NCBI RefSeq assembly: GCF_008370685.1
Contig: NZ_VTZU01000002.1
Location: 62,001 to 126,000 of the forward strand
Direction: 5' to 3'
Source: Aquimarina sp. RZ0
GTDB lineage: Bacteria > Bacteroidota > Bacteroidia > Flavobacteriales > Flavobacteriaceae
Length of the DNA: 64,000 nucleotides
In this document: positions 1,420-43,145 of the stretch, in pieces
Position numbering within the stretch: position 1 is the first letter of the stretch
How the letters are laid out: each line of letters opens with the position of its first letter
Notes under the pieces: model-generated
The model's database searches: none
The model's input: the letters and a program-made list of their open reading frames with translations, nothing else
What the model was told of the DNA's origin: nothing
Translations under genes and position numbers: made by a program

Positions 1420-2022
1420 ATGAAAAAAATTAGAGTATTAACCAGTATTATAACACTAGTTTCTTTAGGAGTTTATTCTCAAACAGATACATCAAATTAT
1501 GAAAAACTAAATCTACAATCACCTAGTGGAGTTAGTTTATTTCAAAGCTCTTCTACCAATGGTGTTTGGGCAACAGGAACAATCACAGCAGATCGCTGGG
1601 GGCTTTTTGAAGATGCTTCAAGTTCTAAAGAAAGAATAACAGTGCTTGCTGGTGGTAACGTGGGGATTGGAACAAATAATCCAGATGCTACACTAGCAGT
1701 AAATGGGAACATCCACACTAAAGAAGTAAAAGTAGATCTTAATGGATGGCCCGACTATGTTTTTGAAGATGATTACAAACTACCCACTTTACAGCAAGTA
1801 GAAGATCATATCATAGAAAAAGGACATCTAGAAAACATTCCTTCTGCAGCAGAAGTAACAGAAAATGGTATTCAATTAGGAGAAATGAATGCAAAATTAC
1901 TTCAGAAAATAGAGGAACTGACATTATATATGATCGAACAAAATAAAAAGACGGAAGCACTTAAAATAATAGTTACAGCACAACAGAAAGAAATAGAATC
2001 ATTAAAGAAAAACACAAAATGA
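1420..2022 (+). CDS. Secreted fibre-like protein with conserved Bacteroidetes C-terminal segment
   Basis: 200 residues with a signal peptide (about 1-20, ending VYSQ). Residues 80-97 hold GNVGIGTNNPDATLAVNG, the repeat typical of phage tail fibre-like and secreted Bacteroidetes proteins. Residues 101-175 (DLNGWPDYVFEDDYKLPTL... then ENGIQLGEMNAKLLQKIEEL) are the conserved C-terminal block that usually follows it, ending in a predicted coiled coil (160-198). There is no T9SS sorting domain and no S74 endosialidase chaperone domain. A longer relative with the same C-terminal block is at 55710-56954. Role unknown; probably extracellular and oligomeric by analogy with fibres. Confidence 0.75.
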   Translation: MKKIRVLTSIITLVSLGVYSQTDTSNYEKLNLQSPSGVSLFQSSSTNGVWATGTITADRWGLFEDASSSKERITVLAGGNVGIGTNNPDATLAVNGNIHTKEVKVDLNGWPDYVFEDDYKLPTLQQVEDHIIEKGHLENIPSAAEVTENGIQLGEMNAKLLQKIEELTLYMIEQNKKTEALKIIVTAQQKEIESLKKNTK

Positions 2023-2169: not shown

Positions 2170-2323
2170 TACCATTTCTATCTTAAAATTACCCACTAAA
2201 ATTTGTTCTTTTCCCCTTATACTTCAAAATAAAAATTAACCGTAGGCTATGCTGAACTTTTCTTTTTTGCCTAAAGAAAAAACAACTGTATTTTATTTGG
2301 GTAATTTTAAAGCAAAAATGGTA
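2170..2323. mobile_element. MITE, subfamily 2 (TAC...GTA ends, TAA target duplication)
   Basis: A 154-bp element with imperfect inverted ends of about 26 bp: left TACCATTTCTATCTTAAAAT, right (reverse complement) TACCATTTTTGCTTTAAAAT. It is flanked on both sides by TAA (2167-2169 and 2324-2326). Its reverse complement shares interior segments (GCATAGC, TACGGTT, AAAAGAA) with the 160-bp MITE at 20680 and 42986, so they look like diverged subfamilies. It has no coding capacity. Confidence 0.7.
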
Positions 2324-2438: not shown

Positions 2439-3506
2439 CTACCCTTCCAACAACCTCTTCATATTTACATTTTCGTAATTACGTTTTACAAAATCCATAG
2501 CCGTTTTTAGGACTTCGCCCATAGAATCACTTCTTCTAAATTTTAAATCTAATGTAAAGTTATATAGATGTTCCCGGAGTTCTTCTAAATTCTCTCGCGT
2601 AGAAATCGTATCCTGACACATACAAGCAATTAAAGTTTCGTACCGCGATCTGGAATTTAAAATACGTTTTGCCAGAATAGATCGTTCTTCCTTTTTATAT
2701 TGCTCAACAGATCGGGGTTGTAATTTACTCATGACAACATCAACCATCGTGAAATTTTCCTTAAAAAACTGAGGTTGATATACTTTCAATTTCCCTTCAA
2801 AACACTGCTGATCAAAATCAATAGCTCTAATCTTATATTCTACATGATCAAAATCATGGATAGGAATAATCACATAATTATAGGAGCGCATATCACCTAA
2901 CAGCCGCATCTGGCAGCGCTCATTAAATTTCACGAATTCTTTTGCTATCTGAGCCTTTGCCTGATCACTCAGATCCGGCAGGAAATCTTTGATAAACACA
3001 TCTCCTGCAATTCCCGCAATATGTTCCTCGATCAATGTGTTTTTATATACCAAAAAATTGATCCTGTTTGGTGAGAACATATGTTCTAATTCTAATCCAT
3101 AAATACGGGATGCGTCAGCTTTCTTTACATAAATATACGTATAGTTATCATTAAGAATATTTCTAATCTTGATTCTAAAAGGTTTGGAATTGCCAAAAGT
3201 ACAGTAATCAATTGCATCTATATTAAGAAATTCTATGGCATCTTCATTACCATCAGAATGCAGTATAGTATACACTTTTTTTAAACTAGATTCTATTTCA
3301 GGACGCTCATGTTCTTCATAATACACACGTACCCACAAGGTATCTTCATCATTAGTATCATAAACCACAATCGAACCCGAAAACCTTAATAAATCATCAT
3401 AAAAAACGGGAATCTTAATCTTACGATTACATTCCTTTAAATACGCATCTAATTGATCATTTATAGGATACGTAGGTTTCTTTTTAGACATCAGTTCTTC
3501 TTCCAT
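2439..3506 (-). CDS. Conserved protein of unknown function
   Basis: 355 residues, ATG start, no signal peptide or membrane segment. The middle holds KEFVKFNERCQMRLLGDMRS (about 190-209) followed by IIPIHDFDHVEYKIRAIDFD (about 213-232), ending in an acidic DFD that could bind metal. The C-terminal third is helical and charged. I do not recognise a named family, although proteins of this look occur in flavobacteria. The gene is divergent from the ABC transporter pair at 3633 with 126 bp between starts. The 3' side has an ATTTTT microsatellite and a MITE but no obvious terminator of its own. No function is claimed. Confidence 0.6.
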   Translation of the reverse strand: MEEELMSKKKPTYPINDQLDAYLKECNRKIKIPVFYDDLLRFSGSIVVYDTNDEDTLWVRVYYEEHERPEIESSLKKVYTILHSDGNEDAIEFLNIDAIDYCTFGNSKPFRIKIRNILNDNYTYIYVKKADASRIYGLELEHMFSPNRINFLVYKNTLIEEHIAGIAGDVFIKDFLPDLSDQAKAQIAKEFVKFNERCQMRLLGDMRSYNYVIIPIHDFDHVEYKIRAIDFDQQCFEGKLKVYQPQFFKENFTMVDVVMSKLQPRSVEQYKKEERSILAKRILNSRSRYETLIACMCQDTISTRENLEELREHLYNFTLDLKFRRSDSMGEVLKTAMDFVKRNYENVNMKRLLEG

Positions 3507-20174: not shown

Positions 20175-21066
20175 TTGAATTATTTTAAAAATAAAATGGC
20201 ATTGGAAGAAAACGGATACGCTATAGTATCCAATATATATTCAGACAGAGAAATTAGCCAAATGCTAAGCTGTATAGAAAATGTAAATCAAACAGGGAAT
20301 TCTTTTTTAAAAACAAAAGAGCTATTTGCAATTCGTCAACTCATAAAAAAAATTCCAGCACTCACCAAAATGGTATTCAATAAAAAATTGACAGAACTAA
20401 TATCTTATCTTTCTGAATCCAATTACTTTCTTACAAAAGCTATCTATTTTGACAAACCAAAAGCATCAAACTGGTTTGTTGGATATCATAAGGATATCAG
20501 TATCTCTGTAGATAAAAAAGAGACTGTAGAGAGTTATAAGAACTGGACTTTAAAAAAAGGACAAAATGGAGTACAACCACCAATCAAAATATTACAGGAT
20601 ACTATAACCATTAGAATACATCTAGACGATACTGATGAAAATAATGGCGCGTTAAAAGTAATTCCTACATCACATCTAATACGATTTGTGATTAAAAAAT
20701 TCGTATAAATTCATTGAATTATTTTTTCTTTATGCAAGGCAAAAAAATCAAGCATAGCTATAGCTACGGTTTATTTTTTAAACGAAGTAGAAAGGAAAAA
20801 GAAACGATGAATATGCGAAATTTTTAGTTATAAATCGTATAAAAGGGGTAATTCGTGTTAATTCTAAAAGCTGCATAACAGAAAACGAATACCTTTGTAC
20901 AGTCAAAAAAGGTGGAATTATGCTCATGAAGCCGTTATTATTACACGCATCTGGCAGAACAGTTAATAACAAAAGGAGAAGAGTAATTCATTTGGAGTTC
21001 AACAAACACAGACTCACTGCCCCTCTAAAATGGTTAGAGTATTGCGAGATAAAAACTAATACATAA
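20175..21066 (+). pseudogene. Phytanoyl-CoA dioxygenase (PhyH) family gene interrupted by a MITE
   Basis: The first 168 codons encode the N-terminal part of a PhyH-type Fe(II)/2-oxoglutarate oxygenase, including the metal motif HKD (H105, D107). At 20677 a 160-bp element is inserted; the interrupted frame runs ten codons into it and stops at 20708. Beyond the element, 20842-21066 continues the same protein in frame once the element and one TAA duplication are removed: KGVIRV..., then KPLLLHASGRT with the distal His (H203 of the restored protein) and the 2-oxoglutarate Arg (R207), ending in ...EIKTNT. The restored protein is 242 residues, normal for the family. The start is TTG 20175 or ATG 20196. 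As it stands the product lacks the distal ligand and should be inactive. Confidence 0.88.
20680..20839. mobile_element. MITE, subfamily 1, copy A (inside the PhyH gene)
   Basis: 160 bp, starting TACGATTT and ending AAATCGTA, with imperfect inverted ends of about 30 bp. It is flanked by TAA direct repeats (20677-20679 and 20840-20842). It differs from the copy at 42986-43145 by a single base that I can see. It carries a 31-codon frame (20732-20827) that is not kept in the related element at 2170, so it is probably non-coding. A TAA/TTA duplication resembles IS5/IS1031-type or PIF/Harbinger-type target choice (inference). Confidence 0.88.
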
Positions 21067-22195: not shown

Positions 22196-22760
22196 AACCA
22201 CCCTGCACTTAAAGTGCAGGGGTTTGATTTTACTAGGGATTAAAGTCCCCTCTTGCCTATTCCTTTATGAAATTGGAATTATCACTACCATCTCGCCTGT
22301 GATGTTCCAAATATTCATTGACCATCTCATCTGTGATGTTTCACCTACTCCAAACACCGTAACCATGTGCCCAAAAATGTTTACCCCAATAGCGATCTCG
22401 TATACTAGAAAACTCTTGTTGTAACTTCCTTGATGTTCTTCCTCTTAAATGTTTTACTATATAACTAACACTCAACTTTGGAGCATATTCAATGTGCATA
22501 TCAACGTGATCTACACCAACAAAACCTTTCAATATCTCAATACTTTCTGCTTCACAAATCTGAATCAAAAGTTCTCTATAACGAATTTGAATATCTCCTC
22601 GAAGCACTTTATACCTATACTTAGTAGACCAAACTATATGACAGGTCAATCGAATAACTGTATGAGTCCCTTTTCTTATTTTTGAATCCATCAAATCTAA
22701 GATATAGATTTTTTCGCATTACTAAAGTGCCGCAATGAAACTGCAGGGCTTTCACTCAAA
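22196..22760 (-). mobile_element. IS200/IS605-family element, degenerate
   Basis: The element has a single minus-strand Y1 transposase gene and no inverted terminal repeats, as expected for IS200. A perfect hairpin CCCTGCACTT-A-AAGTGCAGGG (22201-22221) lies beyond the 3' end of the gene, where the right-end recognition hairpin belongs. A weaker structure around 22720-22740 sits at the other end. The boundaries are approximate. The transposase is inactivated (see the pseudogene entry). Confidence 0.75.
22257..22694 (-). pseudogene. tnpA: IS200-type transposase TnpA, broken by an in-frame stop
   Basis: The open part (117 residues, to 22341) matches the Y1 transposase family: HIVWSTKYRYKVL near the start and HFWAHGYGVWS at the end. 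A TGA after GVWSR is followed in the same frame by NITDEMVNEYLEHH and a natural TAG at 22257-22259, so the stop probably replaces a Gly codon (GGA). The lost part contains the helix with the expected catalytic tyrosine (NEYLEHH). In addition the HUH motif reads HVD (residues 63-65) instead of HxH. Both changes should abolish activity. Confidence 0.85.
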
Positions 22761-39299: not shown

Positions 39300-39667
39300 T
39301 AATTCCATAAATTTTGTGCATCGAACTGACATATACGGCAAAAATAATCTCCTGCTGGTATACCACTTGTTATTTGAATTTATTGATGATCTCATCTTGA
39401 CTTTACTATTTCCTGAAAAATGGTTGAAGTTCGTCCATATTTCGTTGCTTTTTTCGTCTGTAGTGTTACTATAGACTACAAAAAATGCCGCATCCGGTCA
39501 AATTTCAGCTAATTTTCGATTAAAAATAAAAATCAAGGTAATTTCTATGATATGAGAAAATTATGCTTTTCAGCTTAATTTCAGAATAAAAAAATAATAG
39601 AAGCTCAGGCTATTCTATAATTTTCTTTATCTTCTTAGCCACAAAATCATTTATCACTTACACGTTC
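39300..39667. other. Gene-free stretch
   Basis: There is no coding signal on either strand. A segment at about 39389-39420 (CTCATCTTGACTTT ... TATTTCCT) resembles the reverse complement of the hairpin at 35757-35796 but does not itself fold. It presumably holds the promoter of the tricorn-like protease. Confidence 0.45.
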
Positions 39668-42985: not shown

Positions 42986-43145
42986 TACGATTTGTGATTA
43001 AAAAATTCGTATAAATTCATTGAATTATTTTTTCTTTATGCAAGGCAAAAAAATCAAGCATAGCTATAGCTACGGTTTATTTTTTAAACCAAGTAGAAAG
43101 GAAAAAGAAACGATGAATATGCGAAATTTTTAGTTATAAATCGTA
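42986..43145. mobile_element. MITE, subfamily 1, copy B (intergenic)
   Basis: 160 bp with the same TACGATTT...AAATCGTA ends as the copy at 20680 and one visible base difference (C for G at the AAACSAAG site). It is flanked by TTA on both sides (42983-42985 and 43146-43148). It lies between the terminators of two convergent genes, a harmless position. Confidence 0.88.

What the first reader, a model, noticed from the sequence alone, without database searches (positions are those of the whole stretch)
20175..21066. A 160-bp MITE splits a PhyH-type dioxygenase gene, and removing it restores the frame exactly
The element (20680-20839) is flanked by TAA on both sides. Removing it and one TAA joins CTA (Leu168) to AAA GGG GTA (KGV...), giving a 242-residue protein with both His ligands and the 2-oxoglutarate Arg. 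No other damage is visible in the gene, so the insertion looks recent. The near identity with the second copy (one difference in 160 bp) says the same.
Basis: partly seen in the sequence, partly recalled or inferred. Interest (0 to 1): 0.75.

Follow-up and report, generated by a model that had tools for sequence, protein, structure and literature searches.

The report
Hairpin mobile element breaks dioxygenase gene
A tiny mobile DNA element has jumped into and broken an oxygenase gene in a marine bacterium; it is one of hundreds of copies there and belongs to a widespread family whose one strand has been kept able to fold into a long hairpin.

Summary
The finding holds. Element A (20680-20839, TAA on both sides) splits a PhyH-type dioxygenase gene. 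The halves join in frame; 25 of 26 distinct homologues cross the join without a nearby gap, and none of the 26 carries the element.

The element matters more than the gene. Its left end occurs 326 times in this 7.0-Mb genome, an Aquimarina by its relatives. A covariance model finds the family in 44 of 149 genomes drawn from the family and 23 of 295 from the class. Length is mostly about 160 bp. The centre is conserved while the ends fall into several unrelated types. One end type matches a resident IS5-type insertion sequence over 20 bp, though those copies match the core less strongly.

One strand folds better in 18 of 18, 25 of 25 and 25 of 25 representatives, with compensatory changes and G-U pairs favouring that strand. 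This suggests selection on folded RNA or single-stranded DNA; base composition explains part.

Most likely: a recent insertion, moved in trans by an IS5-type transposase, that inactivated PhyH. The transposase for the TACGATTT ends was not found; the folded strand's role is unknown.

The parts
20175..20679 (+). 5' part of the PhyH-type dioxygenase gene (start to insertion, includes the TAA duplication)
   Evidence: ORF ends early at 20708; Pfam PhyH 4e-8
20677..20679 (+). left target-site duplication TAA
20680..20839 (+). 160-bp element A, hairpin MITE; the strand that folds is the + strand, which is the sense strand of PhyH
20715..20807 (+). conserved core of the element family (model R2)
   Evidence: 101 bits, E 1.4e-16; this copy was in the training alignment A4
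20840..20842 (+). right target-site duplication TAA
20843..21066 (+). 3' part of the PhyH gene with its stop
42986..43145 (+). second copy of element A, 1 difference, between convergent genes
2170..2323 (-). 154-bp member with TACCATTT ends, between the convergent ORFs 1420-2022 (+) and 2439-3506 (-)

Best explanation
Element A is a non-autonomous hairpin transposable element. A transposase supplied in trans, most likely of the IS5 family, inserted it at a TAA in a PhyH-type oxygenase gene, duplicated the TAA, and so broke the gene. Shown: the insertion, the duplication, the frame break, the copy number, the relatives across the class, and the one-strand fold. Inferred: that an IS5-type enzyme moves it, that the gene product is lost, and that the folded + strand (as RNA or as single-stranded DNA) is needed at some stage of the element's life and keeps the interior and the paired ends under selection.
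For: Insertion. Three-bp TNA duplications in 50 of 54 copies. 326 left ends. One-strand fold: plus strand better in 18 of 18 Aquimarina representatives, in 25 of 25 loci from other genera of the family (25 of the 29 such loci fetched) and in 25 of 25 loci of the class sample from 22 genomes (25 of 28 fetched outside the own genome), orientation set by sequence only in both. Consensus fold -46.9 on plus, -18.5 on minus; G-U 110 and A-C 8 on plus, G-U 16 and A-C 44 on minus. Pair changes on A2: 37 of 54 pairs changed on both sides (shuffled 23.4), covariation 0.585 against 0.179 shuffled and at most 0.125 slid. Core A4: covariation 0.561 against 0.185 shuffled and at most 0.153 slid. Outer 28 nt: G-U against A-C 53:7, 81:8, 55:14. 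IS5 link: a 161-bp element with GAAGTGG ends shares 20 of 20 end bases with one end of a 928-bp IS whose transposase fragment matches IS5 NF033580 at E 5.8e-15.
Against: No autonomous element with TACGATTT ends was found in the 20 PF01609 loci, in about 1.1 Mb of loci, overlaps and masked contigs included, or in 0.4 Mb more; 56 small contigs are withheld and unread. The two 928-bp IS copies seen have no full-length transposase frame, and their matches (55.5 and 39.7 bits) are below the family cut-off of 110. Composition explains part of the strand asymmetry: shuffles differ by -2.7 to -10.5 kcal/mol on average, 4 of 13 elements (L085, L255, L264, L299) do not exceed all 60 shuffles, and L299 has a minus-strand z-score as strong as the plus. 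On A4 the number of pairs with double changes (17 of 20) does not discriminate: slid versions give 15-18. Only 15 of 25 family loci keep equal flanking trinucleotides. Same-direction gene gaps split 16 sense to 11 antisense, so no role in host transcripts is supported.
Confidence: 0.8

Rival explanations
1. An ordinary deletion-derived MITE: the interior is a leftover of one IS, and the hairpin is only a by-product of long inverted repeats.
For: TNA duplications, inverted repeats and high copy number fit. P. gingivalis MITEs share IS5 ends but have unrelated interiors (PMC4596501, section 7 part 1 of 2 read).
Against: Here the interior is conserved while the ends differ: TACC/TACG, GAGCCTG, GGCTTTG, GGCATCG, AGGGTTTG and GAAGT types. 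Six elements with other ends than TACC/TACG (L277, L292, L297, L298, L299, L302; all members of A4) each exceed all 2000 hairpin-preserving shuffles in similarity to the core consensus. A pure DNA palindrome should not prefer G-U over A-C on one strand.
Confidence: 0.15
2. The strand asymmetry is mutational: cytosines of one strand deaminate while that strand is exposed, with no selection on folding.
For: The plus strand has more G than C in all 16 rows, and composition accounts for part of the energy gap.
Against: 42 G-U cells lie in pairs where only A-U is seen as the Watson-Crick alternative, against 4 where only G-C is seen (62 both, 2 neither), so C-to-T change alone does not explain them; double compensated cells are frequent (173 against 55.6 shuffled; 186 against 54.0).
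Confidence: 0.1
3. The element acts mainly in host transcripts, as an RNA processing or stability hairpin, as proposed for ERIC and NEMIS.
For: In PhyH the folding strand is the sense strand. Of 7 copies whose open frame spans at least 100 codons with at least 10 on each side, 6 are in sense (my count; short spans may be chance). ERIC and NEMIS precedents (PMC2229807, parts 1 and 2 of 3 read).
Against: Among 49 copies with a gene on each side, same-direction cases split 16 sense to 11 antisense. Copies avoid open frames: span of at least 150 codons in 7 of 54 (3 of these at the very end of the frame) against 792 of 1048 control points.
Confidence: 0.25

Closest known systems
RUP (S. pneumoniae, 107 bp) and other IS-mobilised bacterial MITEs
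   Same: Small, non-coding, inverted ends, target duplication, ends shared with a resident IS (here for one end type only); RUP is reported in transposase genes (PMC2229807 parts 1-2 of 3), and 4 distinct A copies lie within 1.5 kb of PF01609 matches here.
   Different: RUP uses IS630-Spn1 and TA; here 3-bp TNA duplications and, for one end type, IS5-type ends; the core is kept across several end types and a class.
ERIC (enterobacteria, 127 bp)
   Same: Long hairpin with orientation-dependent RNA effects reported (PMC2229807). Two E. coli ERIC copies also fold better on one strand (-45.3/-35.1 and -41.8/-30.8).
   Different: Core model R2 does not match ERIC (best E 0.32, on another stretch); TA at the ends; different host class.
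bcr1-type repeats (Bacillus cereus group)
   Same: MITE-like repeats, often in UTRs or operon gaps (passages of PMC3446304). Length and hairpin details of bcr1 are recalled only.
   Different: Not compared by sequence here.
P. gingivalis IS5-type MITEs (BrickBuilt, MITE239, MITE464, MITE700)
   Same: Ends match IS5-family ISs; Bacteroidota host (PMC4596501 outline with abstract, and section 7 part 1 of 2).
   Different: Interiors reported as unlike each other, BrickBuilt as confined to P. gingivalis and P. gulae; here one interior goes with several ends. No sequence comparison was made.
Cardinium IS982-derived MITE
   Same: Bacteroidota MITE that adds to the decay of other mobile elements (PMC9769881 part 1 of 3).
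   Different: Derived from an IS982-family element and described as unique to one strain.

Membership tests
Bacterial MITE | non-coding, short, terminal inverted repeats | tested here: met
Bacterial MITE | target-site duplication | tested here: met
   50 of 54 copies of A
Bacterial MITE | ends shared with an autonomous element in the genome | tested here: inconclusive
   ends shared with a 928-bp IS, transposase frame not intact in the copies seen, for GAAGTGG-type elements; nothing found for TACGATTT
IS5-derived MITE | 3-bp target duplication of TNA kind | tested here: met
   A: TNA. GAAGTGG type: 10 of 12 non-IS pairs of 75-254 bp have equal trinucleotides, but of mixed kind, AAT 4. The link of TNA to IS5 subgroups is recalled.
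IS5-derived MITE | IS5 transposase shown to act on it | not testable with these tools
   needs a mobility assay
Known Rfam RNA family | match at gathering score | tested here: not met
   0 matches in the window; best over the element E 0.67 at 20.9 bits, gathering score 140
ERIC | sequence and structure match | tested here: not met
   R2 on two ERIC loci: best E 0.32, on another stretch
PhyH (phytanoyl-CoA dioxygenase family) | Pfam PF05721 over the cut-off | tested here: met
   59.9 bits against 22, joined
PhyH (phytanoyl-CoA dioxygenase family) | enzyme activity | not tested
   -

The most novel reading that the evidence does not exclude
A class-wide lineage of about 160-nt satellites with a conserved folded core that changes its terminal repeats to fit whichever IS5-type transposase is at hand, and whose mobility depends on folding of one strand (RNA or single-stranded DNA), a stage not known to me for IS5-type transposition.
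Probability: 0.3. Interest if true: 0.85.

Novelty: new variant of a known kind. Interest (0 to 1): 0.64.

Why it matters
How small bacterial MITEs move was called an open question in the 2007 review read here in part. A family of nearly constant length in many genera of a class, with hundreds of copies in one genome, a conserved core and exchangeable ends, makes the question testable: the pairing can be broken and restored without changing the end type, and the ends can be changed without touching the core.

Tried and rejected
Y1/IS200 mobilisation: a Y1 transposase ORF lies at 22341-22694, but duplicated trinucleotides that vary in N argue for a DDE enzyme (recalled mechanism). Known RNA family: none in Rfam. 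ERIC homology: not supported. Ribosome hopping over the insert: take-off CTA and landing ATA differ and copies avoid genes; judged unlikely.

Autonomous partner for TACGATTT ends: PF01609 loci, scans for paired ends, end pattern in 12 relatives, IS5_3 family in 13 genomes; none found. Ends GAGCCTG in 6 genomes gave mostly 161-bp elements (others 95-337) but no IS-sized spacing in the loci held.

A first alignment (A1) had one wrong coordinate and was replaced by A2. Whether GAAGTGG-type elements share the core: against the majority consensus not significant in 6 of 7; against the individual cores all 7 exceed 150 of 150 shuffles, best match L298. Their R2 scores (35-41 bits) are little or no higher than the reverse strand of element A gets, so this link is weaker than for the other end types. 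The downstream 3-hydroxyacyl-CoA dehydrogenase has no relative near the PhyH homologue in 30 loci (repeated with the own locus as positive control, found).

Literature: ten searches of open-licence PMC papers; no title or abstract start listed there describes this family. Papers read only in the parts named in Closest known systems. Subscription papers were not searchable.

Full report
1. The observation. The window reads as described: a 160-bp element at 20680-20839 between two TAA, inside an ORF that starts at 20175 and now stops at 20708. Element plus duplication is 163 bp, not a multiple of three, and all three sense frames of the element contain stops. Joined in frame, the halves give 242 residues with PhyH at E 5.8e-16 over residues 11-216, better than either half (4e-8 and 0.0029).

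2. Homologues. In the genus, 34 of 66 genomes held, own included, have a match to the joined protein, best 73% identity; in three of them (G028, G034, G051) the match is partial or in pieces. Thirty loci were aligned; one shorter hit (L136) was dropped and 29 kept, 26 of them distinct, because three pairs are the same sequence from two collections. Of the 29, 28 have no gap within 10 residues of the join (25 of 26 distinct; L126 has one), and none carries the element. Two more distant homologues fused to another domain (L066, L067) also have a gap near the join. Three same-genus loci read TCACATCTAAAGGGAATA at the join. The joined protein departs at 3 of 57 columns invariant in the other 29 rows, including Q106K beside the metal-binding HxD motif (motif recalled); two other sequences, L122 and L065, also depart at 3, both more distant (57% and 50% identity). 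So there is no second stop or frameshift, but 'no other damage' is too strong.

3. Copies in this genome. The 24-nt left end occurs 146 + 180 times with up to 3 mismatches, control 0. The 40 candidates scored of 471 are all 100% identical (best first); other copies differ by a few bases. In 399.5 kb of further stretches, three of the 20 chosen around known copies, model R2 gave 35 distinct places at E up to 0.001 (my count; the weakest score little higher than a reverse strand), with several subfamilies. Of 54 distinct A copies with enough flank, 50 have equal flanking trinucleotides. Open frames of at least 150 codons span the insertion point in 7 of 54 copies (3 of them at the very end of the frame) against 792 of 1048 control points in the same flanks, so an insertion in mid-gene such as PhyH is unusual. 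In 49 copies with a gene on both sides the arrangement is convergent 17, divergent 5, same direction 16 sense and 11 antisense. The other two members in the window also lie between convergent genes.

4. A family far beyond the genus. With the DNA alone, 31 of 52 genus genomes match, own included; one species (G053) has copies identical over all 160 bp. A covariance model (R1) from 18 Aquimarina elements finds the family in 44 of 149 genomes drawn from the family and in 23 of 295 drawn from the class, 13 of 156 genera, own genome included in both. Best matches are mostly 157-166 bp; other lengths seen are 151, 154, 176 and 194, and with GAGCCTG ends 95-337 beside the usual 161. Rfam has no match.

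5. One strand folds. Plus strand (the strand of the core consensus) is the better folder in 18 of 18 Aquimarina elements; in 25 of 25 loci from other genera of the family (25 of 29 fetched; L280-L283 were not tested); and in 25 of 25 loci of the class sample from 22 genomes (25 of 28; L307, L308 and L310 were not tested). In the last two sets orientation was set by sequence alone. On alignment A2 the consensus fold is -46.9 kcal/mol on plus and -18.5 on minus; mismatched pairs are G-U 110 to A-C 8 on plus and G-U 16 to A-C 44 on minus. A strand-neutral alignment of the two arms gave G-U 96 to A-C 34 over 16 rows. The pair census gives 37 of 54 pairs with changes on both sides, 96.0% of cells paired, covariation 0.585 against 0.179 in shuffles and at most 0.125 when slid. 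The core alignment A4 (53 sequences) gives 0.561 against 0.185 shuffled and at most 0.153 slid; there the number of pairs with double changes (17 of 20) is no higher than in slid versions (15-18), but the cells are (186 against 44-63). The structure was derived from these alignments, which favours it over slid versions; the plus/minus comparison does not have that bias. In the outer 28 nt, compared without any fold, G-U exceeds A-C 53:7, 81:8 and 55:14; per element 15 of 15, 24 of 24 and 19 of 23 (1 opposite, 3 ties; 3 elements with weak ends left out). G-U cells stand in A-U-only pairs 42 times and in G-C-only pairs 4 times, against deamination as the sole cause. Against my reading: shuffles keeping dinucleotides also fold better on plus by 2.7 to 10.5 kcal/mol on average, 4 of 13 elements do not exceed all 60 shuffles, and L299 is as exceptional on minus as on plus.

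6. Same core, different ends. Loci of other genera carry the core between other inverted ends: GAGCCTGTT (L299, L302, duplications TTA and TAA), GGCTTTGTAACG (L292, L312, TTA and TAA), GGCATCGTGCAG (L297), AGGGTTTGATAT (L277), AAGTTATTC (L298). L277, L292, L297, L298, L299 and L302 each exceed all 2000 hairpin-preserving shuffles in similarity to the core consensus (they were among the 53 sequences behind that consensus). In the own genome, 161-bp elements with GAAGTGGTTTAAAC ends resemble the ends of a 928-bp IS: element M1 (L153) matches one end of the L114 copy at 20 of 20 and the other at 18 of 20, and L113 at 17 of 18; element M2 (L162) matches at 19 of 20. The transposase fragments of these two copies match IS5 (NF033580, E 5.8e-15 and 3.8e-10, both under the cut-off) and neither copy has a full-length open frame. 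The cores of these elements match the family less strongly: R2 35-41 bits, no significance against the consensus in 6 of 7, but 7 of 7 significant against the individual cores, nearest L298. I take them as probable members.

7. How it works. Shown: insertion with duplication and gene break; conserved core; differing ends; one-strand pairing. Inferred: IS5-type transposases act on the ends; the core and the pairing serve a stage with a single folded strand. Sense/antisense balance in gene gaps gives no support for a role in host messages, which leaves the element's own RNA or a single-stranded DNA form as the better guesses. RNA and DNA cannot be told apart here: G-T pairs also stabilise DNA hairpins, and the DNA parameters show the same preference.

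8. Known kind. It is MITE-like by every feature tested except that the autonomous partner of the TACGATTT ends is missing. Closest are RUP, ERIC and bcr1-type repeats and the IS5-type MITEs of P. gingivalis. What differs is the class-wide core with several end types. I found no description in the listings of ten searches of the open-licence library.

9. Scores. The gene break alone is ordinary. The family is the interest.

Noticed in passing
window 22341-22694 (-): 117-aa ORF of an IS200/IS605-type Y1 transposase (Pfam E 2.6e-30) 1.5 kb downstream of the element; not linked to it.
   Followed up: partly
L066, L067 (G018, G008): PhyH homologue in one open frame with a long N-terminal part that looks like a WYL-type regulator (family recalled, not searched).
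   Followed up: no
G028:C5:88323-88895, G051:C216:709-1402: PhyH homologue matches in two pieces, with stops in the pieces of G028, in two other genomes of the genus; cause not examined.
   Followed up: no
G053:C44:31211-31371: Element with one A-type and one B-type end, a possible recombinant.
   Followed up: no
L100, L105, L110, L111: Four distinct A copies lie within 1.5 kb of transposase matches (PF01609); at L106 (same place as L100) an open frame spans the insertion point.
   Followed up: partly
L313, L314 (E. coli ERIC): Two ERIC copies also fold better on one strand, and hold strings resembling the AAGGC / AACGxAG internal loop of the core; the core model does not match them.
   Followed up: partly
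window 39560-39653 (-): Weak core-like match (E 0.0028 with R2) without clear ends.
   Followed up: no
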